The notes beneath the pieces are model-generated. The model did not search any database. It was not told the DNA's origin and worked only from the letters and a program-made list of their open reading frames with translations. A stretch of DNA of 64,000 bases, taken from contig CAXIPT010000002.1 in the NCBI GenBank assembly GCA_964030475.1, forward strand, positions 14,099,950 to 14,163,949, written 5' to 3'. Source of the stretch: Tethya wilhelma (taxonomy: Eukaryota > Porifera > Demospongiae > Tethyida > Tethyidae). The first letter of the stretch is position 1. Every line of letters begins with the position of its first letter. Made by a program: the position numbers and the translations under genes. Below are positions 6,771 to 63,146 of the stretch, one piece after another.

Positions 6771-7212
6771 CCCACCCTCACACACAAGGAAAAGGGGGTC
6801 TGGCACACTTTGAAGGATTTTTGGGTCTTTCTGATTCAGCATGTCAGGATTTCGATGCACCAATCAGAGAACTTCCATGTGACTGCCACGCACTCAATGA
6901 TTCCATACTTGGAGCGTGCAGCAGCTGCTTGGGCATTGTTGCTAGACAACGAAGCTCACACGTGAGAATTAAACCAGATATCAGCTAACTATAGCTGAGT
7001 CAGCAAAATCCCAAAAATTGTTCAAAGTGTACCAGACCTATTTTTCCTCGGGAGAGGGTTGGGTCTGGTCTAGGCACGAGATTAAAATGCAAGTTGCCTG
7101 GAACTATATTTTGTAATACCTGGTTGTTTTTTGGAGGTGAATACTTTCTTAGATTAGCCTCTAAATGACTTGGACACTTACTTAATATGATTTGTAGAAT
7201 TATGAAATAATT

Positions 7213-7334
7213 AGAACAAGTAACAAAAACATTGGAAATGTAATGAGACACAGGAATGGCTAAATTGTAAAAAGGTGGGCAAAGTGAGAGATATGGAGAG
7301 GGAGGAAATTTAGCCATTCATTACATTTCCAGGA
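7213..7334. repeat. FB-MITE relic
   Basis: Left arm (acaagtaacaaaaacatt, aatgtaatgagacacagg, aatggctaaat) followed by a short remnant of the right arm (tttagccatt...cattacatttcc). The core is deleted. The same relic recurs at 8887-9008. Confidence 0.6.
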
Positions 7335-7848
7335 CGCATAGCGCTGGCCTGAGGGCTGAGATCAATAAGTGACATAATATAAATAGTTTACATCCTTAGG
7401 CATTTTACCATGGCGACATTTATGCTTAATAACAAACATCTGCCAAGTCAAAACTATCAGTGGATTTTGAATCATTGTATGGCAACTTTGACTCCTGAAC
7501 ACATAACTATTTCTCCTTCGTTGCTAGAAAACAGTTTTACCTGCTCTCTGACAACACAAAGCAATTTTTTTATTTTGGGCCCAGTTTTTCATGGAAACCC
7601 GTAAAACTCTAGACACATCATGCAAACTCACATCATTCAACCCTCCCTGGCTTTCCTGCCAAGTACAAATAACAGTGCAGCTGTTAGATTTTAGCTTGCT
7701 TACTTATTTGTGTGGTACCAAGTATAAGAGTCAACACAACTCTTCAACATGTTCAACATGGCGTGCAGGTTAATTAGTAATTTTTAACTCCTGTGACTAG
7801 ATTTATATGTACGGACTGTATAATAAAATAATTGATTTAATAGGTGTT

Positions 7849-8115
7849 ACAAGTGAAAAACAATAAGGAATATAATGAGAACATATGAATGGTAAAATCA
7901 TAGAAAGCAAGCAAAGAAGATATATATAGAAATAGTGGTCAGATTGAGTGATGACTTCATTTCTGTGTGCAGGCCTAATGTTCATATCTCTCTAGCTCAA
8001 TGAAATTGTAGACACAGGAATAAACTTTCACTCAATCTGACCACCATTCCTATCTTGGGTTTGCTTACTTTTTGCGATTTTACTATTCCTATGTTCTCAT
8101 TACATTTTCACTTGT
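7849..8115. repeat. FB-MITE, GGTCAGATTGAG core type
   Basis: Foldback element: the arm acaagtgaaaaacaat...gaatggtaaaatc...aagcaagcaaag returns inverted at 8050-8115. The inner arms are gtggtcagattgagtga and its inverted counterpart tcactcaatctgaccacc. Confidence 0.75.
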
Positions 8116-8251
8116 TTGTTCTATTTTTTCTGAATAATAAATTTTTTGCATGTACCCTAGCAAATTTTACAAAGCAACTAATAGCCATGGTGGTGTTTTG
8201 TATCCAGTAGTAGGGTGAACAGCCTGAATCTGTACTTGTCACGAAATATAT

Positions 8252-8456
8252 GAATTCTAAATAACTCACGCTTGTATGAATGAAAGGGTGGTCAATTTGA
8301 TTTTCCAAGTAGCTAATGAATTATTTATGAGTAGATAAATAATGGCTACCATACAGAGAAGGTGCTTTTCGTCTTCTATCTAGTGACTTAGCTAGAGAGA
8401 CAAATAAACGATGCCAAAAGCAATTAAAGACAAAGAAACCAAGTTTACTTGTTCAA
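8252..8456 (-). repeat. HP-repeat, inverted, truncated at the adapter-like junction
   Basis: Reverse complement of the HP-repeat inner end (gaattctaaataactcacgc...), broken off at 8456 exactly where the adapter-like spacer begins. In the second copy the same repeat continues to its hairpin end. Confidence 0.75.
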
Positions 8457-8489
8457 GCGTCAGATGTGTATGAGACAGTACGCTTGCAT
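8457..8489 (+). other. Adapter-like spacer (Nextera Read 1 / Tn5 mosaic end)
   Basis: The 33-bp spacer between the two duplicated segments contains agcgtc followed by agatgtgtatgagacag (beginning with the last a of copy 1). This is the 3' part of the Nextera Read 1 adapter, whose Tn5 mosaic end reads AGATGTGTATAAGAGACAG, with two A missing. The mosaic end is established knowledge; contamination is the inference. Confidence 0.85.
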
Positions 8490-10130
8490 GATTTTTGGGT
8501 CTTTCTGATTCAGCATGTCAGGATTTCGATGCACCAATCAGAGAACTTCCATGTGACTGCCACGCACTCAATGATTCCATACTTGGAGCGTGCAGCAGCT
8601 GCTTGGGCATTGTTGCTAGACAACGAAGCTCACACGTGAGAATTAAACCAGATATCAGCTAACTATAGCTGAGTCAGCAAAATCCCAAAAATTGTTCAAA
8701 GTGTACCAGACCTATTTTTCCTCGGGAGAGGGTTGGGTCTGGTCTAGGCACGAGATTAAAATGCAAGTTGCCTGGAACTATATTTTGTAATACCTGGTTG
8801 TTTTTTGGAGGTGAATACTTTCTTAGATTAGCCTCTAAATGACTTGGACACTTACTTAATATGATTTGTAGAATTATGAAATAATTAGAACAAGTAACAA
8901 AAACATTGGAAATGTAATGAGACACAGGAATGGCTAAATTGTAAAAAGGTGGGCAAAGTGAGAGATATGGAGAGGGAGGAAATTTAGCCATTCATTACAT
9001 TTCCAGGACGCATAGCGCTGGCCTGAGGGCTGAGATCAATAAGTGACATAATATAAATAGTTTACATCCTTAGGCATTTTACCATGGCGACATTTATGCT
9101 TAATAACAAACATCTGCCAAGTCAAAACTATCAGTGGATTTTGAATCATTGTATGGCAACTTTGACTCCTGAACACATAACTATTTCTCCTTCGTTGCTA
9201 GAAAACAGTTTTACCTGCTCTCTGACAACACAAAGCAATTTTTTTATTTTGGGCCCAGTTTTTCATGGAAACCCGTAAAACTCTAGACACATCATGCAAA
9301 CTCACATCATTCAACCCTCCCTGGCTTTCCTGCCAAGTACAAATAACAGTGCAGCTGTTAGATTTTAGCTTGCTTACTTATTTGTGTGGTACCAAGTATA
9401 AGAGTCAACACAACTCTTCAACATGTTCAACATGGCGTGCAGGTTAATTAGTAATTTTTAACTCCTGTGACTAGATTTATATGTACGGACTGTATAATAA
9501 AATAATTGATTTAATAGGTGTTACAAGTGAAAAACAATAAGGAATATAATGAGAACATATGAATGGTAAAATCATAGAAAGCAAGCAAAGAAGATATATA
9601 TAGAAATAGTGGTCAGATTGAGTGATGACTTCATTTCTGTGTGCAGGCCTAATGTTCATATCTCTCTAGCTCAATGAAATTGTAGACACAGGAATAAACT
9701 TTCACTCAATCTGACCACCATTCCTATCTTGGGTTTGCTTACTTTTTGCGATTTTACTATTCCTATGTTCTCATTACATTTTCACTTGTTTGTTCTATTT
9801 TTTCTGAATAATAAATTTTTTGCATGTACCCTAGCAAATTTTACAAAGCAACTAATAGCCATGGTGGTGTTTTGTATCCAGTAGTAGGGTGAACAGCCTG
9901 AATCTGTACTTGTCACGAAATATATGAATTCTAAATAACTCACGCTTGTATGAATGAAAGGGTGGTCAATTTGATTTTCCAAGTAGCTAATGAATTATTT
10001 ATGAGTAGATAAATAATGGCTACCATACAGAGAAGGTGCTTTTCGTCTTCTATCTAGTGACTTAGCTAGAGAGACAAATAAACGATGCCAAAAGCAATTA
10101 AAGACAAAGAAACCAAGTTTACTTGTTCAA
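8490..10130. repeat. 1641-bp direct duplication, copy 2
   Basis: Second copy of 6816-8456. Unlike copy 1, it continues on the right into the rest of the inverted HP-repeat, so this copy has the natural right flank and copy 1 the natural left flank. Confidence 0.9.
9523..9789. repeat. FB-MITE, second copy within the duplication
   Basis: Same element as 7849-8115, at +1674. Confidence 0.75.
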
Positions 10131-44959: not shown

Positions 44960-45987
44960 TTGAGGGTATCCAACAGGGGTTTAGAATTGGGTATAATCGA
45001 ACCAACCACACCTGCACTCGAGCTCGGAAAAACCTTTCCAGTGCAACTGAGCACCCAGATATTATATCAAAATATCTGTCAAGTGAAGTGGTGAAAGGCA
45101 GGATGTTAGGACCATTACCAACCTGCTCCATCCCGGATGTTCAGATCAGTCGTATTGGGGTCATCCCTAAAAAATCAACACCAGGAAAATAGAGACTGAT
45201 CATGGACTTGTCCGTCCCCCCGACCCAGAGTGTAAACAACGAAATAGATCCAGAAACCTCCTCCTTCACCTACGTCAGAGTCGGTGAGGTGGCTAACAAA
45301 ATAGCAAAAACAGGTAACGGATCATACCTAGCAAAGATGGACATATCTGAAGCATATCAAATCGTGCCTGTCCACCTAGATGACAAACATCTCCAACTGG
45401 ATGGGTCAAGTGTACATCGATGCTACACTGCCATTCGACCTCCAAAGTACCCCTCTTATATTTACAGCCCTAGCCGACAGGCTACAGTGGATCCTTGAAA
45501 AACCGGGAGTCTCATATGTAGCACAATACTTAGACTACTTCATCACCGTCGGCCCTCCAGATTCAGACTAATGGGCAAGGAATCTACAGATATAATCATT
45601 GAAACCTGCAGAGAACTGGGGATCCCCCTTGCCCCACATAAGCTGGTAGCTCCTACCACCTGCATTATCTTCCTTGGTATCTAGATCGATACGGTTGCCA
45701 TGGAACTAAGACTCCCCAAAGACAAACTGGGGACCTTGTGTCTAAATGGATATTCAACAAGCACTGCACAAAGCATGAACTCGAGTCTCTCCTGGGTCAT
45801 TTGAACCACCCATGCAGTGTGGTCAAACCAGGTACATCATTAATTGGCAGACTTATCTAGCAGCCAAAAAGAGACACTGGCACACAATCCGTATCAATAA
45901 AGAGGCTTGGTCAGGTATTAGGTGGTGGCACACGTTCCTTGAGTCATGGAATGGCGTATTTATCCTAAAGCGGCCTCATACTGAGAT
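44960..45987 (+). pseudogene. Reverse transcriptase-RNase H of the second element, inactivated
   Basis: SRIGVIPKKSTPGK-stop-RLIMDLSVPP, KMDISEAYQIVPVH (motif A Asp kept), a frameshift, YIDATLPFDLQSTPLIFTAL, then YLDYF where active enzymes have YLDD: the second catalytic Asp is Tyr. The connection region is HWHTIRINKEAWSGIRWW. It ends at the N at 45988. Confidence 0.8.
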
Positions 45988-51060: not shown

Positions 51061-51647
51061 GCAAGTTGCCTGGAACTATTTTGTGATACCTGGATGCTCT
51101 TGCTCTTCTTAAGGGAGACTTTTACCATGCATTTTTTCATAAATTTCACCAAAATTTTTTTATTGCTCAGTTCTATACCTTGATGCATGTATTAGTTATA
51201 GTTAAAGTTTCAGAGCATTTTAATACTCCTCCTTGAACCATTTTGTGCATGCTATTTCACACTATCAAGCTACGAAGTACTATTCCTGTAAAAAGTAGTA
51301 ACATAAACTATCTCCATAATTGTTCGTGGTAGAAATAATTGATCTAGCCTGATTTCCAGGCCTAACCTGTTGCTTTTCTCTTTGGCAATCTTTACCACAG
51401 AAACTACAAGGCCATGCCACACAGGTTTTATTATTTGTCAATGGTGAATAAGAAAAAGAAAAGAGAGCAGTTCATCAATCAGAGTATAATTACACAGTAG
51501 GAAAAGTGGATGATGAGCTTGATTTGGTACAATGAGTAAAGCCTGAAGGGTCCGGCCTAATTGTAACTACCTTTCAGCTGCATGAATCAGATGAAGTTGA
51601 TAGTTGTATGAAAGTACTAAGAGTTTAGGTGATGACTAGTGATCATG

Positions 51648-52205
51648 TTATAATATCGTACAACATTGCTGCTTAGTTTCATGTTCCTTTTGCTTGGTCT
51701 TGTCTTGCATAAGTTGATCGACAATCAGAGCAAATGGGTCTTGGATCCCTACAGCCGTCTTAGCTGATGTTTGTAGAAGTGGAATCCCATGTCTTGAAGA
51801 ACAGTATAGACCCGCAGTAAGACTGACTTTCCATTCTTGAGGCAATAAGTCACACTTGGTGCAAACAAGCACCACTGGTGCTTGAGGCTTGAGAAGACGA
51901 ATTTTGAGGAGATAGTTGTCGATCAGTTCGTATGACTGATGATCGTCTACTGAATAAGCACATATAAATGCATCTCCAGATTTCACTCCTTGCTCCAAAA
52001 GGAAAGGATATTGTTCATTCGCAGATCCACATGTGTCCATTATGTTCAGAAGACAGGACTTACCATCAACAGTCGTATACTGCCTTCGATACACATCTTC
52101 TAAGGTAGGTTCATAAAATTCTGGGAATATATTTTGAACAAAAACCCTGATCAATGATGTCTTCCCAGTGCAGCAGCCCCCTAACACCACTATCTTGTAC
52201 TCCAT
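51648..52205 (-). CDS. Ras-like small GTPase with non-canonical P-loop and switch II
   Basis: 185 residues in a single exon; the start at MEYK was chosen because it matches the Ras N-terminus (an upstream in-frame Met would add 38 unrelated residues). P-loop is GGCCTGKT at 9-16, with Cys11-Cys12 where Ras has Gly12-Gly13. The effector-like loop is YEPTLEDVYRRQ (31-42). Switch II is DTCGSANE (57-64), with Ser61 for Gln61. Guanine specificity comes from TKCD (116-119) and SAK (147-149). It ends CCTIL: a CaaX box (Leu, predicted geranylgeranylation) preceded by Cys, so membrane attachment is likely. The family acts as a GTP-dependent switch; the replaced residues are those needed for GTP hydrolysis. 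It is divergently paired with a transposase 55 bp away. Confidence 0.88.
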   Translation of the reverse strand: MEYKIVVLGGCCTGKTSLIRVFVQNIFPEFYEPTLEDVYRRQYTTVDGKSCLLNIMDTCGSANEQYPFLLEQGVKSGDAFICAYSVDDHQSYELIDNYLLKIRLLKPQAPVVLVCTKCDLLPQEWKVSLTAGLYCSSRHGIPLLQTSAKTAVGIQDPFALIVDQLMQDKTKQKEHETKQQCCTIL

Positions 52206-52260
52206 GCTTGTCAAGGAGGCTCTAAATAGAATCAGGGGTTTACATAATATAATTGTCAAG
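52206..52260. promoter_or_regulatory. 55-bp divergent intergenic region
   Basis: Separates the GTPase and transposase start codons. The same 55-bp spacing is kept in the second copy (62005-62059). It contains ttgtcaag next to each start and an AT-rich centre (acataatataatt). Any shared promoter must lie here or inside the 5' coding parts. Function is inferred from position only. Confidence 0.4.
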
Positions 52261-52962
52261 ATGCCAGTTGCTAAGTTCAAGGCAAAGAAGCATCCAAAGC
52301 GTTTTTTTGGAACCCCCAACCTTCATCTTGGTAGCAGGCCAAGGCCACTTCCAAGCTCTCATGGGGCTGAGAAAGTGAAGGAGACTCCAAAAGAGAGGCC
52401 AATCCCCTTGCAGACAGCCAAAGCTAAGAAGATGGCAATCTCTCATGCAGCACAGCCCAGCACTAGCATTGCTGCTGGTGAATCTGGCTCTGAGTCTGAC
52501 TCTGAGCTTCAGGAGTCAGTGAAGATGAAGGGTTACCGTACTGTCCAATGTGAAACCCTTGGCAAGGTAGTGAGTGAGGCGTGTGTGTGCTCTATGTGTA
52601 CCTCTCCCCTTGTTGTCATGGAGGACTTGGCTCAGAGAAGGGGTTTGGTATCGACCCTGAAGATCTGCTGCACCAATGCCGAGTGTGGCAGAGAGATCAA
52701 AATATCAGACCCCTATTCTTCGGACACAAAGTCTCTGAACAGCAGGTCAGTGTTGGCAATGAGGGAGATAGGTAGAGGTGGCAAGTACATGCAGACTTTC
52801 TTTGGAATGATGAATATGCTCCCTCCAGTTAGCACCCGCTCCTATATGTTACACAACCAGGCTCTGGCTGCTGCTGCAATGTCCGCAGCTCAGACCAACA
52901 TGAATGCTGCCTCCGAGTACCTCCATCATCTCAATGGCATTGACCCACAAGAAATCCTTGAT
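52261..52962 (+). CDS. Mutator-like DDE transposase, N-terminal part (copy L)
   Basis: MPVAKFKAKKHPKRFFGTPN start, a basic linker and an acidic Ser-rich stretch. A Cys cluster resembling a zinc ribbon follows: CVCSMCTSPLVV (about 115-126), then CCTNAECGREIKISDPYSSD. The conserved block is GRGGKYMQTFFGMMNMLPPV. The frame is open until the N at 52963, just before the catalytic CDGTW that follows in the other copies (61310 region). The N-terminal fingers probably bind the transposon ends. Confidence 0.8.
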
Positions 52963-52963
52963 N

Positions 52964-54196: not shown

Positions 54197-54426
54197 GAAG
54201 TAAAACACACATCTCAGTCAGTTGGAGGCAGAAGCTGCATCATAAGATAAGTTATGATAATCAAAGTCCAGATTCATCTGTTAACAAGAGCAACCAGGTA
54301 TCACAAAATAGTTCCAGGCAACTTCAGTGCATATATTTCCAAATAAAGCACACTTTTGTGTGTGGAAAGGGTCGTCAATTCAAATTTTCTAGAAGCTAAT
54401 GAATTATACATGAGTGTAGAAATTAA
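54197..54426 (-). repeat. Inverted linker and inverted HP-repeat inner end
   Basis: acacatctcagtcagttgga and ccaggtatcac (inverse of 53905-54020), then ccaaataaagcacacttttg to gtgtagaaattaa. It closes the palindromic composite and is cut at TTAA by the next transposon. Confidence 0.75.
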
Positions 54427-54732
54427 GGGTGGCTTTAACCAGAAAAATTGAATTTTTTTTGTAATTTTTTTATTATTTATTTCAAAACAATATCACATGT
54501 AAAAGTAATATTCTAAGGTACAAAGAATTCACTCTTTCTTTTGTGGAGATATAGACTTTTACTAGCAATATGTACAGAGTAGTAATATACAATGGTAGCA
54601 CAAAGGACAGCATTTTGCTTGAACAAAGTTCACTCCATCATAATGACACTGCTCAATTACAGTCTAAAATGAATTTAAAAAAAACTATCATTTCTGCCAG
54701 CTGTTGCAGAGATCTTCCGAGATTAGACTTGC

Positions 54733-55620
54733 TCAAAGATAAAGAAGGTAGAGGGTAACAAGTAATGTTTTTCTCATGGAATACAAGTATCTGTGGTAAA
54801 ATTTTGGTTGGGTACACAACCAATCCCTCTGATCTTTCTGGAACAACCCAACCATCTGTTCTAAATTCTGGTACAGTCCTCCAGTACCTTTACTTTTGAT
54901 TTCACCCACAGTAGTATAAATACCTTGGTCTACGACAACAAAATCAGCCACTCTATCTTGAGTTACTACTACAATACCATATCCATCAATTTCAGGATCA
55001 GGAATAACCCATTTCACAGATAAAGAACCAGGCTGATAGATGCCATTTGGATTTGTGCTAATTAGACAATCACGGTGTGGTTCAAGGAATTTACAAAATT
55101 CCATGAAAAAGAGTTTTGCAAACGCATTTTGAAAATGGGCCATGCAAGCTTGATGGAACTTTTTGTATACTTCCTTGTGCTGATTCCTCAACACACATAA
55201 CTCTGCATCTGAAAACACAGCTGGAACTTCTGCATCAGGTGGACCCTCATCGTCTGAGTCTGACGTTGCCATTGCAGCTTGTTGCACGTAAGGATCAACC
55301 TCTATGTATGGTGATTCTGCAAATAGACTTGCACTGGCACAGCGTATATGTGCAGCCCGATTGGATTTCACAGATAGTGGCCATACAGAAGGTAAGTCAA
55401 AAGACGGGTTTATTGTCTTTGAGGGGTACAAGCGAATGTCACAGGACATTATGATTGGTTGCATTCGAAAGGAAAACTTTGTGCCACTTATATCCACAGC
55501 ATAATCAGATTCCCATTTATCCTTTTCAGTGGCATATATTTTGTTACTCTTCACTGTGGTGGTCACAAAAATATTGTCCACCTTGAGTTGACTGGAGCCC
55601 ACTTGGCTACTCTCTACCAT
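54733..55620 (-). CDS. Uncharacterised 295-residue protein with a D...ExK (nuclease-like) motif
   Basis: Open, single exon. N-terminal half without known domain (VDNIFVTTTVKSNKIYATEK; CDIRLYPSKTINPSFDLPSV). An acidic linker lies at residues 119-130 (TSDSDDEGPP). The C-terminal half (about 135-275) has a Phe-rich helix (FAKLFFMEFCKFLE), then RVADFVVVDQGIYTTVGEIK: Asp226...Glu240-x-Lys242, the pattern of PD-(D/E)XK nucleases, and GLYQNLEQMVGLF. It occupies the position that the Ras-like GTPase has in the sister copies. A host gene is possible but the location within the element argues against it. The nuclease assignment is by motif only. Confidence 0.6.
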   Translation of the reverse strand: MVESSQVGSSQLKVDNIFVTTTVKSNKIYATEKDKWESDYAVDISGTKFSFRMQPIIMSCDIRLYPSKTINPSFDLPSVWPLSVKSNRAAHIRCASASLFAESPYIEVDPYVQQAAMATSDSDDEGPPDAEVPAVFSDAELCVLRNQHKEVYKKFHQACMAHFQNAFAKLFFMEFCKFLEPHRDCLISTNPNGIYQPGSLSVKWVIPDPEIDGYGIVVVTQDRVADFVVVDQGIYTTVGEIKSKGTGGLYQNLEQMVGLFQKDQRDWLCTQPKFYHRYLYSMRKTLLVTLYLLYL

Positions 55621-55898
55621 CCAGATACTAGAAAGAAACTCGGAGAGAGAAAGAGAGAGAGGGGGAGGGGGGAGGAATTGTTAGATAGGCAGAGGTTGTA
55701 AGAATGGTGCCAAGTGTATACCAATTTAGTATTTTTGGTACTTACCAGTATAAATAGATATAGAACTTGTCATGTACACCATCAGATCCTACACGTACAC
55801 GTGGACTCTTTACAGTCACGTGACAGTGGCCTAGGTTAGGGGATCCCCAAGTCACAAGTCAGCTGGCCGTGAACTGCTACAGTTCTAGAAAAGTGTCA

Positions 55899-58080
55899 TG
55901 CCGCGTACCTAGGCATTCGGCAAGAGGCCCAAAGGCTTCCATGGTATACTCCAGCACTTGCTGAACCCAGTTAGGTCTACCCCACAGTCTACTGGAGTGG
56001 AAGCACCAGCTGAATCTCCAGTTGTGAGACCAACCCCTGTGGAGACAGCTAGCGGTAAGAAGCTGGCTATCTCTCCACGATGTACATCAATGAGTGAACC
56101 CTCTAGAGGAGGCCTGAGGTCATCAGTACCTCCAGTGCTATAAATGAGAATAGTGAGTCTGGTGACTCTACGTATGTGGGGGAGCTGAAAGGCTACCGTC
56201 TTGTCAGCTGTGAGAGACTTTCTGAAGCAGCCAGTGAGATTGGTGTGTGCTCTATTTGTGGCTCTCCCATCACCGTCAGGGAGGACCTAGTTATTAGGAG
56301 AGGGCTAATGTCCAAGTTACATGATGATATGTTGCACCAATAGTGTGTGTAACAGGGAGGTGAAGATATCAGATCCTTATGCCTCCAATGCAAAGTCTCT
56401 GAATGCCATGGCAATGCGAACAATAGGAAGAGGGCATGCTAGCCTGGAATCCTTCTGTGGTATGATTGATATGCTTCCTCCAGTGACCCCTGCCTCCTTC
56501 AGTGAACACAATAAGGTTCTGGCCATGTTCTCTACAGAGGCAGCATCTGAAAATATGCGTACTGCTTCTGCACACCTTCATGAACCGCGTGGAGTCGGAC
56601 TCACAAATGTCATTGATGTTGCTGTCACTTGTGACGGAACGTGGTTGAAGCGTGGCTTTACTGCTACATATGGAGTCGTGGTGATTATTACCTGGGAGAC
56701 TTGCCAGAAGAGGAATCCTGAGTCGGAGGAGTTTGCTAAGTGGTGGGGGGGCCATCAGGAGGAGTGTGCCTGCAACCATCACAGTTCTTCACCTGCTATG
56801 GAATGGGAGGCAGCAACAGAGATATTCAACAGATCAATTGAAAGCCTTAATGTGAGGTAAGAGGAAATGATAATTTTGTTTGAATATTCAGTTTATTTTT
56901 CTTTGTCCATCTATACTCACCAGGTACACTTCAGTCATCAGTGACGGCAATTCGAAGACAATCCAGCACCTAAATGAAGTGAAACCTTATGGTGAAGATG
57001 TGACCATAGTAAAATACGAGTGTGTAGGTCATGTACAAAAACGATGTCAGCGTGATGTCAAGAAAGTAAGCATTGCCAATCATTTTTGGACATTCATGGC
57101 TAACTTCATACTATAATTATACTACACATTAGTGCATTGTGCTATGATAATCATTCTTCTTTATCCCTTTTTTGAAGGTAATAGGGATTGAGAAGAAGGC
57201 AGCAAGGAACAAGGTGACCAAGCTGAAGGAGATGCTTAAGGAAGCACAGGCAGAGGTGCAGGGGAAGTGCCAAAAGAAGGGTAAAAAAGGGGGAAGAGCG
57301 AACCATTTGCTTCTGATAAGGTTGTGGATCTGAAAACTGAGATAGTCGAGGCAGAAGAAAAGTGCATTCGTGGGACAATCAATGATAAGACAGTAGATCT
57401 CCTTCAGGTTTGTTTACAAAGAACAATTTCTACTTTCTATTTCATGCTACTGCATGTATGCACACCTGCAGGTTTACTATGGGAATGCTATTCGCAGCCA
57501 CACAAATGACCTTGCTGGAATGAAAAAGGCTTGTTGGGCAGCATTCTATCACTCTCTCTAATCTGATTAAAGACCTCAGCACCATTGTTGCCCAGAGGGA
57601 GCTGATAGCTGGTGCAAGTATTAACGGGCACTAGCACTCAGTCAGGGTGAAATTCCACCACATAGACCTAAGATTCCTGCTGACTTTGAGAAGTACCTCA
57701 AGCCCATTTTTGAGGATCTATGCAAGGAAGAACTGCTACGGAAATGTTTACTTGGGGCCACTCAAAATAGAAATGAAAGCTTTAACAAATTGGTTTGGGC
57801 TCGGGCACCCAAGACCGAATTTGTTGGCAGGGCCACCATTGATATCGCTACCAGTCATGCTGTCCTTGTGTTCAACAGTGGCAGGAAGGCTCTACTGTCT
57901 ATTCTGGAGCGTATGGGCATTCATGCTGGTCCTCTTTGCACTACTTATCTTGAGCAGAGGGATTCTACTCGTTGCTACAGGATCAAGCAGCAGAGGAAAT
58001 TGAAGCGGGCAGCAGAGAAAGGTGCAGAGGAGGCACATGTTATAAAAGAGGGCATCACTTATGAAGCAGGGGGGTTCTAG
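55899..58080 (+). pseudogene. Mutator-like DDE transposase with three introns, frame breaks (element K)
   Basis: Same domain order as the copies at 52 and 60 kb. N-terminus near 55899 with an early stop, then FGKRPKGFHG, the Cys cluster (CSICGSPITV, ICCTNSVCNREVKISDPYAS), SFCGMIDMLPPVTPASF, VTCDGTWLKRGFTATYGVVV (first Asp), YTSVISDGNSKT (second Asp), YECVGHVQKRC and GATQNRNESFN (Glu). GT-AG introns lie at 56857-56923, 57066-57177 and 57408-57471; each splices back to the intronless paralogues' protein. The block around SKSCPAC is deleted, and frameshifts occur near 55915, 56150, 56320 and 57560. Confidence 0.8.
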
Positions 58081-58254
58081 GCATACACAAGAGACTGCAT
58101 AGCCAAATCCTCAAAGGAAAAAGAAAATATTGCTTAAAAAACATGTACATTCATACTCTGTATCTTCTACAGCTGTTTTCTAGAAATCTAAAAATTCACG
58201 TTGTTGGTACATGTAACTAGGCCATAATTTGTAATAAATTTACTGTTAATTAAG

Positions 58255-58949
58255 GGAGGCTTTTACCAATCTGGGGCTCCATGATATAATATGTCAATTT
58301 CTTTATAGTTTTTACTTTAGGTGGTTGAAACTTTATCAGAATGTAGTGTGTAGACTTTTGATATGCTCAGATTTAGCATACCTACTACCCAGGTGAAGGA
58401 TCCCACATGAACATCACTGAGGGCCAGGTGTTCTAACTCAGAGCTAACAACTTCCCACTTAGGAAGTGCTTAAAGTAACCATAAAAGTGTAAAGTGAGTG
58501 GCAAGTAAGGTCATTAGATCAACAATGTATTTTTAACATAGGTCAACCTGATGAAACAGGATAGCTTGTGTTTACTAGCCCATATTCCAAGCCATACCTC
58601 CACCACTGATGGATTTTAGAAAATATTTGCCACTCACTTAATAGAGCAGGGAAAGGGCTTTAAAATGATATATTAATATCTTAAATACATAAACTATAAG
58701 CAAGTTAGAACACTTCCAGACTTAGGAAATAGTGATTATCAAAAGAAGCAATAAAAAGTGGGAAAAGTGTTTTCAAGAAAGTTCTTCTCGGTTTCTTCGA
58801 TCCATAATATATATGCTGCACATGTGCATAAAACAAAGCAGGGAGAGGGTAAATAACACACACAGTAACTTCCCTATTAGACTGACCTTTGAACTTGGAG
58901 TAGAATATTATGAATTCTCCCTGTGAGTGAAAAGAACCGAAAGCCCTAG
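58255..58949. other. Probable 3' untranslated and sub-terminal part of element R
   Basis: About 700 bp between the left end and the transposase stop; no coding signal. Confidence 0.4.
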
Positions 58950-60548
58950 CTAGAACCCTCCAGCTTCATACATTACACCCTCCACCTCTATATTAGCCTC
59001 CTCTACACTCTTCTTCTTCCTTCTTGTCGACTTCCTCCTCTGCTTCACCTCCTCTGATGACACATAACTTGCTGCATGAAGCTGAGTCCTGTCTCGCAAA
59101 GCGAGGTGAGCACTACAGAGAGGACCAGCTTCAATACCAATCTTGTCCATGACTTGGGTCAATGCCTGACTCCCGCTATTGAATACCACCACAGCAAGAC
59201 TGGCAGCTAGTTGAACAGTAGACGTGCCACAGAAGTCTGTCTTTGAACATCGTGCCCAGATCATGGCATTGAAAGCTTCATTTCTGTTCTGGGTGGCTCC
59301 AAGTAAACACCTGCTAAGCAAAGACTCGTGACACAAGTCTTCAAAAATCTTTCCAACAGCTTCCCGGTAGTCAGGAGGAACTAAGGTGTGGGCACTTGGT
59401 GTATCCTGACCAGTGGCCAGTGCTTGCTGATATTTACACCAACTATCTTCACCATCAGGGCAAAAATCATGATGGGGATCCTCATCAGTTGAAATGTAAT
59501 GATAGTAGACCGCCCAGCATGCTGTGGTCATACCAGCAAGATTTCCAGGGTTATCAACTATAGCCTTTCTGTAGAGGCTCTGCAGGGTGTCAATGTCGGA
59601 ATCGAACATCTTCCCCTGCACAATTTTCATCTGCTGAGACTTGATTTCCTCCTCAAGTGCTTCCATCTCCACTTCACAAGCCACAATCATCATCTCTGAA
59701 TCAGTGCAAGGTTCCCTCCACCATGACTGCAACTCTGCCTCTTCCTCCACCTCTCCCTCTTCTTTTTCCTCCACCCCTCCTCCTATCCATTCCTCTGCCT
59801 TGTATCGCCTCAGCCTTGGCACTTTTCAGAATCTTGCGCACATTCTTCAACTTTGATGTGAGCACCTTGATGCGTTCCTTGGGGGCCTTGTTGGCCTTGT
59901 TGGCAGATGCAAGCTCCTTCTTCAGTGCTCGCACACGCTTGCCTAATCGCTTCTGCACATGCCCCACACATTCGTGCTTTGTTATGCTCACTTCACTTCC
60001 ATAGGGCTGATGTTCATTCAGGACAGATATAGTCTTTGAGTCACCATCTGAGATGATCTCAGTGTATCTTAGGTGGCGAGTCTCCACGGAACGTTTCCAG
60101 AGAATGAGAGCTCCAGCACACTCCATTGCAGGTGAAGATCCTTCGTGGTTTGCAAGGCACTTTTCCCTGTGTCCATCCAGCCAGACATCAAAGTCCTCTG
60201 CTCCCAGTCTTGTCTTCTGCTGTGAGCATGCTGGGCAGGACTTTGACATCACTTCAAAGTCTAGAACTTGTCCTGTGTCCCAGGAGATGACCACAACAAC
60301 ACCGTGTATGGCTGTGAACCCACGTCTTGACCATGTACCATCACAAGTGACCTTGATATCAAGGATTTCTTGTGGGTCAATGCCATTGAGATGATGGAGG
60401 TACTCGGAGGCAGCATTCATGTTGGTCTGAGCTGCGGACATTGCAGCAGCAGCCAGAGCCTGGTTGTGTAACATATAGGAGCGGGTGCTAACTGGAGGGA
60501 GCATGTTCATCATTCCAAAGAAAGTCTGCATGTACTTGCCACCTCTAC
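58950..60548 (-). pseudogene. Mutator-like DDE transposase, middle and C-terminal part (left of gap)
   Basis: From right to left: GKYMQTFFGMMNMLPPV, VTCDGTWSRRGFTAIHGVVV (first Asp), SKSCPACS, CLANHEGSSPAMECAGA, YTEIISDGDSKTISVL (second Asp), HECVGHVQKRLGKRV, a Lys/Arg/Gly-rich basic stretch, and CLLGATQNRNEAFNAMIWAR (catalytic Glu). It ends VMYEAGGF, the same C-terminus as element K. No introns at the positions where element K has them. A 5-bp deletion near 59712 causes one frameshift; otherwise open. Confidence 0.85.
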
Positions 60549-60570
60549 NNNNNNNNNNNNNNNNNNNNNN
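60549..60570. other. Assembly gap of 22 N
   Basis: Unknown bases between two versions of the same transposase segment. Confidence 0.99.
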
Positions 60571-62004
60571 GCTCTGCAGGGTGTCAATGTCGGAATCGAA
60601 CATCTTCCCCTGCACAATTTTCATCTGCTGAGACTTGATTTCCTCCTCAAGTGCTTCCATCTCCACTTCACAAGCCACAATCATCATCTCTGAATCAGTG
60701 CAAGGTTCTCCATCCTCCACCATGACTGCAACTCTGCCTCTTCCTCCACCTCTCCCTCTTCTTTTTCCTCCACCCCTCCTCCTATCCATTCCTCTGCCTT
60801 GTATCGCCTCAGCCTTGGCACTTTTCAGAATCTTGCGCACATTCTTCAACTTTGATGTGAGCACCTTGATGCGTTCCTTGGGGGCCTTGTTGGCAGATGC
60901 AAGCTCCTTCTTCAGTGCTTGCACACGCTTGCCTAATCGCTTCTGCACATGCCCCACACACTCATGCTTTGTTATGCTCACTTCACTTCCATAGGGCTGA
61001 TGTTCATTCAGGACAGATATAGTCTTTGAGTCACCATCTGAGATGATCTCAGTGTATCTGAGGTGGCGAGTCTCCACGGAACGAATGAGAGCTCCAGCAC
61101 ACTCCATTGCAGGTGAAGATCCTTCGTGGTTTGCAAGGCACTTTTCCCTGTGTCCATCCAGCCAGACATCAAAGTCCTCTGCTCCCAGTCGCTGTGAGCA
61201 TGCTGGGCAGGACTTTGACATCACTTCAAAGTCTAGAACTTGTCCTGTGTCCCAGGAGATGACCACAACAACACCGTGTATGGCTGTGAACCCACGTGTA
61301 CCATCACAAGTGACCTTGATATCAAGGATTTCTTGTGGGTCAATGCCATTAAGATGATGGAGGTACTCGGAGGCAGCATTCATGTTGGTCTGAGCTGCGG
61401 ACATTGCAGCAGCAGCCAGAGCCTGGTTGTGTAACATATAGGAGCGGGTGCTAACTGGTTCATCATTCCAAAGAAAGTCTGCATGTACTTGCCACCTCTA
61501 CCTATCTCCCTCATTGCCAACACTGACCTGCTGTTCAGAGACTTTGTGTCCGAAGAATAGGGGTCTGATATTTTGATCTCTCTGCCACACTCGGCATTGG
61601 TGCAGCAGATCTTCAGGGTCGATACCAAACCCCTTCTCTGAGCCAAGTCCTCTATGACAACAAGGGGAGAGGTACACATAGAGCACACACACGCCTCACT
61701 CACTACCTTGCCAAGGGTTTCACATTGGACAGTACGGTAACCCTTCATCTTCACTGACTCCTGAAGCTCAGAGTCAGACTCAGAGCCAGATTCACCTGCT
61801 AGTGCTGGGCTGTGCTGCATGAGAGATTGCCATCTTCTTAGCTTTGGCTGTCTGCAAGGGGATTGGCCTCTCTTTTGGAGTCTCCTTCACTTTCTCAGCC
61901 CCATGAAAGCTTGGAAGAGGCCTTGGCCTGCTACCAAGATGAAGGTTGGGGGTTCCAAAAAAACGCTTTGGACGCTTCTTTGCCTTGAACTTAGCAACTG
62001 GCAT
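60571..62004 (-). pseudogene. Mutator-like DDE transposase, N-terminal and middle part (right of gap)
   Basis: Starts at 62004 (MPVAKFKAKKRPKRFFGTPN), continues through the Cys cluster and CDGT to the basic stretch, and reaches the gap. Nearly identical to copies L and R-left but with seven deletions of 8-10 bp; one near 61796 shifts the frame at the acidic linker, and another near 61459 (10 bp) shifts it at the MLPPV block. The middle part is duplicated with 59571-60548. Confidence 0.85.
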
Positions 62005-62059
62005 CTTGACAATTATATTATGTAAACCCCTGATTCTATTTAGAGCCTCCTTGACAAGC

Positions 62060-62611
62060 ATGGAGTACAAGATAGTGGTGTTAGGGGGCTGCTGCACTGG
62101 GAAGACATCATCGATCAGGGTTTTTGTTCAAAATATATTCCCAGAATTTTATGAACCTACATGTGTATCGAAGGCAGTATGCGACTGTTGATGGTAAGTC
62201 CTGTCTTCTGAACATAATGGACACATGTGGATCTGCGAATGAACAATATCCTTTCCTTTTGGAGCAAGGAGTGAAATCTGGAGATGCATTTATATGTGCT
62301 TATTCAGTAGACGATCATCAGTCATACGAACTGATCGACAACTATCTCCTCAAAATTCGTCTTCTCAAGCCTCAAGCACCAGTGGTGCTTGTTTGCACCA
62401 AGTGTGACTTATTGCCTCAAGAATGGAAAGTCAGTCTTACTGCGGGTATCTATACTGTTCTTCAAGACATGGGATTCCACTTCTACAAACATCAGCTAAG
62501 ACGGCTGTAGGGATCCAAGACCCATTTGCTCTGATTGTCGATCAACTTATGCAAGACAAGACCAAGCAAAAGGAACATGAAACTAAGCAGCAATGTTGTA
62601 CGATATTGTAA
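62060..62611 (+). pseudogene. Ras-like GTPase, second copy with two compensating indels
   Basis: Same protein as the 51.6-kb gene: GGCCTGKTS P-loop, DTCGSANE, TKCD, SAK and CCTIL are all present. An 8-bp deletion at about 62161 removes part of the effector loop and shifts the frame. A 2-bp insertion at about 62446 returns it, so the middle is out of frame. If the indels are sequence errors, the gene is intact. Confidence 0.85.
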
Positions 62612-63146
62612 CATGATCACTAGTCATCACCTAAACTCTTAGTACTTTCATACAACTATCAACTTCATCTGATTCATGCAGCTGAAAGGCAGTTACAATT
62701 AGGCCCGACCCTTCATGCTTTACTCATTGTACCAAATCAAGCTCATCATCCACTTTTCCTACTGTGTAATTATACTCTGATTGATGAACTGCTCTCTTTT
62801 CTTTTTCTTATTCACCATTGACAAATAATAAAACCTGTGTGGCATGGCCTTGTAGTTTCTGTGGTAAAGATTGCCAAAGAGAAAAGCAACAGGTTAGGCC
62901 TGGAAATCAGGCTAGATCAATTATTTCTACCACGAACAATTATGGAGATAGTTTATGTTACTACTTTTTACAGGAATAGTACTTCGTAGCTTGATAGTGT
63001 GAAATAGCATGCACAAAATGGTTCAAGGAGGAGTATTAAAATGCTCTAAAACTTTAACTATAACTAATACATGCATCAAGGTATAGAACTGAGCAATAAA
63101 AAAATTTTGATGAAATTAATGAAAAAATGGTAAAAGTCTCCCTTAA

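What the first reader, a model, noticed from the sequence alone, without database searches (positions are those of the whole stretch)
51113..52962. A Ras-like GTPase travels with a DDE transposon
Seen: the GTPase and the transposase lie head to head, 55 bp apart, at 51.6-52.96 kb and again (inverted) at 60.6-62.6 kb. The shared block ends at TTAA-gggagacttttacca on the GTPase side in both places. The flanks differ: HP-repeat linker at 51.1 kb, RNase H of a DIRS-like element at 63.14 kb. So the GTPase is inside the mobile unit. I know of no described DDE transposon that carries a Ras-family GTPase as a partner gene. A cellular signalling gene captured and kept with intact motifs is notable.
Basis: partly seen in the sequence, partly recalled or inferred. 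Interest (0 to 1): 0.88.

Follow-up and report, generated by a model that had tools for sequence, protein, structure and literature searches.

The report
Jumping gene carrying a Ras switch
A cut-and-paste jumping gene in this eukaryotic, probably animal, genome carries its own copy of Ras, the cell-growth switch known from cancer, and in the window's branch that Ras is changed at the spots that normally let the cell turn it off.

Summary
The core of the finding holds. A Ras-family GTPase lies inside a TTAA-flanked DNA transposon, head to head with its transposase. The transposase has the features of the Kolobok superfamily. The window family has three near-identical copies with the GTPase; all are incomplete or split by assembly gaps. 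The decisive copy is a distant relative on contig C12: 3,751 bp without a gap, 14/14 matching inverted termini, TTAA on both sides, an open transposase frame and an intact, intronless Ras. Two older relics (C11, C8) keep the pairing. The Ras genes fall in the classical H/K/N-Ras clade. In the window's branch Gly12 and Gly13 are replaced in 9 of 9 members counted and Gln61 in 9 of 10, while the effector loop and the membrane-anchor end are mostly kept; C12 keeps all three residues. My best mechanism, inferred and untested, is a membrane-anchored Ras, insensitive to GTPase-activating proteins in the window branch, that tilts host growth signalling in the element's favour. 'Intact motifs' is only partly right, and copy B is probably two copies joined at a gap. 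The Kolobok paper I read names no GTPase partner, and my library searches listed no such report. New variant of a known kind.

The parts
51109..51127 (+). Copy A: TTAA plus inverted terminus, GTPase side
51651..52205 (-). Copy A: Ras-family GTPase, 185 codons, intact frame, ends CCTIL
52206..52260 (.). Copy A: 55-bp spacer between the two divergent start codons
52261..52962 (+). Copy A: transposase, N-terminal part, cut by the N at 52963
58250..58268 (+). Copy B: TTAA plus inverted terminus, transposase side
58953..60548 (-). Copy B, left piece: C-terminal and middle part of the transposase
60549..60570 (.). Run of N; sequence on its two sides repeats for about 970 bp (probable false join)
60571..62004 (-). 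Copy B, right piece: N-terminal and middle part of the transposase, with small gaps against copy A
62060..62608 (+). Copy B: Ras-family GTPase, frame broken by an 8-base gap and a 2-base insertion
63128..63146 (-). Copy B: TTAA plus inverted terminus, GTPase side
45840..45987 (+). Other copy of the repeat that flanks copy B on the right; runs uninterrupted through the TTAA (one-sided empty site)

Best explanation
This is a Kolobok-type cut-and-paste DNA transposon that took up an intron-free copy of a classical Ras gene and kept it as a partner gene. Shown: the Ras gene sits inside the TTAA-flanked inverted termini (C12) and points away from the transposase across a short spacer; the pairing recurs in elements whose transposases are 32% (window and C11) to 56% (window and C12) identical. 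Inferred: both genes are expressed from the spacer region; the Ras protein is lipidated at its CAAX end, sits at membranes and binds Ras effectors through the kept effector loop. Inferred: in the window's branch host GTPase-activating proteins can hardly switch it off, because positions 12, 13 and usually 61 are changed. Inferred: by tilting growth or survival signalling of the cells in which the transposon jumps (stem or germ-line cells), it raises the number of cells that carry new copies.
For: Anatomy. A small-GTPase hit lies within 3 kb of 5 of 23 merged transposase loci, against 0.08 expected by chance, head to head in 5 of 5; the C8 relic is a sixth, seen by DNA similarity. Classical Ras origin: the 60 best PDB hits shown are K/H-Ras for the window and C12 proteins; tree support 97/97 for one clade with host Ras and HRAS. 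The host Ras on C9 is split, by inference by an intron, while the transposon genes are single frames. Of 35 near-invariant Ras-family sites only G12, G13 and L56 are replaced in all 9 window-branch members counted; G10, G15, K16, Y32, P34, T35, E37, D38, D57, T58, K117 and D119 are kept in 9 of 9. CAAX-type ends. Confident G-domain model, pLDDT 91.8, nearest K-Ras Q61H with a GTP analogue. Changes at codons 12, 13 and 61 lose intrinsic and/or GAP-stimulated hydrolysis (PMC6813200, passages).
Against: No expression or biochemical data. The C12 Ras keeps G12, G13 and Q61 and has only A59S among these sites, so predicted hyperactivity is not a feature of every element. No empty site was found for C12; the one in the window is one-sided. 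No copy of the window family is complete without a gap in this assembly. The database relatives in the site count have no known genomic context. In 18 of 23 merged transposase loci no GTPase hit lies within 3 kb. One capture versus several is unresolved. Changed positions 12, 13 and 61 could also mark a protein with another role.
Confidence: 0.5

Rival explanations
1. The Ras protein is a GTP-dependent switch for transposition itself: it recruits or times the transposase.
For: Kolobok lineages often carry one extra protein (KolX, RecQ helicase, three nuclease types; PMC9587614 sections 3, 10, 11, 12). The divergent layout with a 55-bp spacer would give joint expression. Recurrent pairing.
Against: A CAAX end argues for membranes. 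In 18 of 23 merged transposase loci of this genome no GTPase hit lies near.
Confidence: 0.15
2. The Ras protein is a decoy that titrates Ras effectors or GAPs and dampens a host response such as arrest, death or silencing.
For: Effector loop kept while turnover residues are gone; N116 is T in 5 of 9 members, which may weaken nucleotide binding (consequence inferred).
Against: Nothing here separates titration from activation; no host target identified.
Confidence: 0.15
3. Passenger cargo: Ras copies were swept in once or several times and do nothing for the element.
For: 5 of 23 merged transposase loci carry it. The Ras frames of copy B, C8 and C11 are damaged. Several captures are not excluded.
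Against: Window and C12 Ras proteins are 39% identical, yet both keep full frames, effector loop and CAAX end; an unconstrained 185-codon frame would lack a stop with probability about 1e-4 by the simple reckoning (61/64)^185. Database relatives keep the same pattern.
Confidence: 0.15
4. Assembly artefact or segmental duplication: a Ras gene lies by chance next to a transposon and was duplicated with it.
For: The window has several gaps, and copy B is probably a false join.
Against: The same pairing on contigs C2, C3, C12, C11 and C8; three different flanks at the GTPase-side end, which stops at TTAA; gap-free C12 element with matching termini.
Confidence: 0.03

Closest known systems
Kolobok superfamily (Kol0 with KolX, KolobokE, KolobokH, KolobokD, KolobokP; PMC9587614, sections 3 and 9-12 read)
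   Same: TTAA target, 5'-RR termini, DDE transposase with CxxH and zinc fingers; several lineages carry one extra protein, in KolobokP on the strand opposite to the transposase.
   Different: The extra proteins named there are KolX, PD-D/ExK nuclease, RecQ helicase, DEDDh nuclease and His-Me nuclease. Here it is a Ras GTPase, head to head. The words GTPase and Ras occur zero times in that text.
Classical Ras (H/K/N-Ras)
   Same: Fold, effector loop, CAAX end, tree position.
   Different: Single frame inside a transposon; the window branch lacks G12, G13 and (9 of 10) Q61, and reads TKxD for NKxD in the window protein and P0001-P0004. C12 is closer to the canonical sequence.
Retroviral ras oncogenes (recalled; that A59T is a viral HRAS change is in a passage of PMC6813200)
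   Same: A mobile element that took up a host Ras and differs at positions 12 and 59.
   Different: The carrier is a DNA transposon, and the Ras proteins of two elements have diverged to 39% identity. No disease link is known or implied.

Membership tests
Kolobok superfamily | TTAA target-site duplication | tested here: met
   C12: TTAA at L037 1442-1445 and 5189-5192. Window family: the searched terminus includes TTAA at A, B (both ends), C3 and C5.
Kolobok superfamily | 5'-RR ... YY-3' termini | tested here: met
   TTAA-GGGAG in the window family and C12.
Kolobok superfamily | Paired inverted termini on one element | tested here: met
   C12 14/14 over 3,751 bp with no N. Window copy B 18 of 19, but across an N gap. 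Not found for C11 or C8.
Kolobok superfamily | DDE transposase with C/DxxH between second D and E, zinc finger before E | tested here: met
   C12: TCDGTW 222, CCHC finger 259-291, SDGDSKT 323, CVGH 350, C...WCK finger from 486, NESFN 546. Roles assigned by eye from PMC9587614.
Kolobok superfamily | Place in the published Kolobok tree | not tested
   The published alignments were not available to me.
Ras family GTPase | G-box motifs and G-domain fold | tested here: met
   PF00071 E 9.8e-32 (window) and 1.3e-53 (C12); model pLDDT 91.8. G4 reads TKCD, not NKCD, in the window.
Ras family GTPase | Residues for GAP-stimulated hydrolysis (G12, G13, Q61) | tested here: not met
   Window branch: G12 and G13 kept in 0 of 9; Q61 possibly kept in 1 of 10, P0003 (read by eye). 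C12 keeps all three.
Ras family GTPase | CAAX end | tested here: met
   CTIL in window, C3 and C12, CSIC in P0001-P0004; CSIC in the C8 relic. P0036, P0065 and C11 are incomplete or broken there.
Ras family GTPase | GTP binding and hydrolysis in vitro | not testable with these tools
   Needs purified protein.
KolobokP | Long terminal direct repeats (450-660 bp) and a His-Me nuclease | tested here: inconclusive
   C12 has short inverted termini and its only other frame identified between them is Ras, but I ran no direct-repeat search or nuclease profile search.

The most novel reading that the evidence does not exclude
A lineage of DNA transposons that lives by a captured oncogene-like Ras: a GAP-blind, membrane-bound Ras that pushes host stem or germ-line cells to grow, so that selection on the transposon, not on the host, has maintained an activated Ras.
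Probability: 0.3. Interest if true: 0.94.

Novelty: new variant of a known kind. Interest (0 to 1): 0.83.

Why it matters
Eukaryotic DNA transposons are usually described as living by their transposase, with or without helpers that act on DNA (my general knowledge, and the Kolobok partners in PMC9587614). A transposon that keeps a cell-signalling gene would mean that such elements can act on host physiology. If the window-branch Ras is active, it is a natural case in which changes at the Ras hot spots were fixed and kept. The question is directly testable with a small protein and standard Ras assays.

Tried and rejected
Searches for the pair in other public DNA gave no locus: viral contigs with the GTPase alignment and the C12 transposase, genome contigs, which holds bacteria and archaea, with the GTPase alignment. 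Database relatives of the GTPase and the transposase come without neighbours, so pairing in other genomes is only hinted at: P0004 reads ILFRASLTSM before its G domain, like the window frame, and the C8 relic reads ILFKASLTSI.

An empty site for C12 was sought with its joined flanks (40 of 262 candidates scored). The left flank belongs to a many-copy repeat, and the 38 other matches stop by query position 210, 6 bases past the TTAA; uninformative. One capture versus several: window branch plus C12 as one clade is not rejected (p-AU 0.478; with P0037 and C11 0.343; smaller set with C11 0.243), so neither is shown. The transposase tree has carriers and non-carriers in both deep clades. No paired termini were found for C11 or C8. 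The frame 54733-55620 beside the window's second Kolobok was considered as another partner gene and set aside: its 95% copies on C19 and C4 are not near the Kolobok loci listed; its model is too poor to use (pLDDT 33.9).

Rows dropped: P0005 and P0034 (short) from trees and counts; P0065 from the site count; C3, P0010 and one Rab row from the second tree; C8 from the transposase tree, as tblastn found no fragment. Trees used a chosen part of the database hits: 9 window-branch proteins plus 11 others, out of 613 hits of which 120 were listed. The 23 transposase loci and 61 GTPase places were merged by hand, whose lists are lower bounds by the tool's own words.

Full report
What is there. The window lies on contig C2 of a 124.6 Mb genome of 204 contigs. 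Its organism is not given and I did not determine it; classical Ras, Rap-like and Ral-like genes suggest an animal (labels of the host rows are mine, partly). At 51651-52205 (-) is a 185-aa Ras-family GTPase (PF00071, E 9.8e-32), and at 52261 (+) begins a transposase (PF20700). They diverge from a 55-bp spacer. The block 51109-52962 returns inverted at 61321-63146, 97.5% identical, and both end at TTAAGGGAGACTTTTACCA. The other terminus of the family is at 58250-58268; a further copy of that end lies on contig C5 and a 99% identical transposase piece on C23. The noncoding GTPase-side end occurs in A, B and C3, with a 73% relic on C8.

Limits of the window copies. Copy A is cut by an N at 52963. 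Copy B is split by Ns at 60549-60570 with about 970 bp repeated on both sides. Its right flank is a DIRS-like repeat, of which another copy at 45840 runs uninterrupted through the TTAA; the left flank of copy B does not match that repeat. So copy B is probably two copies joined. The C3 copy lacks most of the transposase. None of these is a clean full element.

The clean element. On contig C12 a distant relative was found with the GTPase query (39% identical). L037 1442-5192 is 3,751 bp, has no N, and begins and ends with TTAAGGGAGGAATT, inverted, 14 of 14. The same scan of six other loci gave no pair above 10 of 14; C8 gave at best 11 and C11 none of 10 or more. The 14-base terminus itself is not rare: 3 matches in the genome and 3 for its reversed control; it is the inverted pairing around both genes that counts. 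Inside are an open 643-codon transposase frame and, head to head, an intact Ras frame ending CCTIL. The transposase has the features given for Kolobok in PMC9587614: first D in TCDGTW, a CCHC finger after it, SDGDSKT, CVGH, a finger before NESFN. So the Ras gene is inside the mobile unit.

How widespread. Of 23 merged transposase loci in this genome, 5 have a small-GTPase hit within 3 kb (A, B, C3, C12, C11), against 0.08 expected by chance; the five are head to head. The C8 relic is a sixth, seen by DNA similarity only. The transposase tree of 9 rows has two deep clades, 32-43% identical to each other; carriers and non-carriers occur in both. Either the pair is old and was lost repeatedly, or Ras was captured more than once.

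What the Ras is. The 60 best PDB hits shown are K-Ras and H-Ras chains for both the window and the C12 protein. In the tree the window branch (window, P0001-P0004, P0035, P0036, P0038, P0041, P0065) forms one clade (100/99). It falls with C12, C11, P0037, the host Ras of contig C9 and HRAS in a clade of support 97/97, apart from the Rap, Ral, Rit and Rho rows. In the earlier tree without the extra relatives the place of the window branch was unresolved. A clade of window branch plus C12 is not rejected (p-AU 0.478). The host Ras on C9 is split, by inference by an intron; the transposon genes are not.

The unusual residues. Of 35 sites kept in at least 12 of 13 reference rows, three are replaced in all 9 window-branch members counted: G12 (to C, S or P), G13 and L56. 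A59 is kept in 1 of 9. Y32, P34, T35, E37 and D38 are kept in 9 of 9 and Y40 in 8. Q61, read by eye, is lost in 9 of 10; P0003 reads DTAGQ and may keep it. The C8 relic also reads CC at 12/13 and ends CSIC. C12 keeps G12, G13 and Q61 but has A59S; the C11 relic has P, T and V at 12, 13 and 59. The model of the window protein is confident (pLDDT 91.8) and nearest to K-Ras Q61H with a GTP analogue. In human Ras, canonical changes at 12, 13 and 61 lose intrinsic and/or GAP-stimulated hydrolysis; KRAS G12C barely changes intrinsic hydrolysis but, like the other KRAS mutants measured, loses 97-99% of GAP-stimulated hydrolysis (PMC6813200, passages). Whether this carries over to a protein 39% identical to HRAS is inference.

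Most likely working. Shown: a mobile unit with two divergent genes, recurring pairing, kept effector loop and CAAX end. Inferred: expression from the spacer, membrane anchoring, GTP-locked signalling in the window branch, and benefit through more cells that carry the element. The rivals are a transposition switch, a decoy and passenger cargo; no data here separate the first two from the best reading.

Known or new. PMC9587614 (outline, sections 3 and 9-12) names KolX, PD-D/ExK nuclease, RecQ helicase, DEDDh nuclease and His-Me nuclease as Kolobok partners; the words GTPase and Ras do not occur in its text. Nine library searches on transposons listed no report of a DNA transposon with a Ras gene. 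Three of them returned nothing, and one search listed only 15 of 3,787 papers. Besides PMC9587614 I opened only PMC10799480 (passages; GTPase and Ras absent) and, PMC6813200 (passages). Repbase and most subscription journals were not searchable, so a description there is possible.

Noticed in passing
window 54423-58077: A second Kolobok-like transposase (about 55904-58077, +), 48% identical to the first and 89% to one on contig C19, near a terminus TTAAGGGTGGCTTTAACCA at 54423; no GTPase hit beside it.
   Followed up: partly
window 54733-55620 (-): A 295-aa frame with no Pfam match at E 0.01 and no PDB match at E 5; 95% identical copies on contigs C19 and C4 away from the listed Kolobok loci, so probably part of a repeat of its own.
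   Followed up: partly
window 6810-8456 and 8484-10130: A 1,647-bp direct repeat, 99.9% identical, 27 bp apart: recent tandem duplication or assembly duplication.
   Followed up: no
The 45840 copy is cut by an N.
   Followed up: partly
L037 1242-1445 (left flank of the C12 element): A many-copy repeat (38 further places scored, 86-91% identical) ends at or just past the TTAA where the C12 element begins.
   Followed up: partly
P0035, P0036, P0038, P0041, P0065 (database proteins): Further Ras-like proteins from unnamed contigs; the four with a readable P-loop lack G12 and G13, and all five read DTSG. Whether they lie in transposons is unknown.
   Followed up: partly
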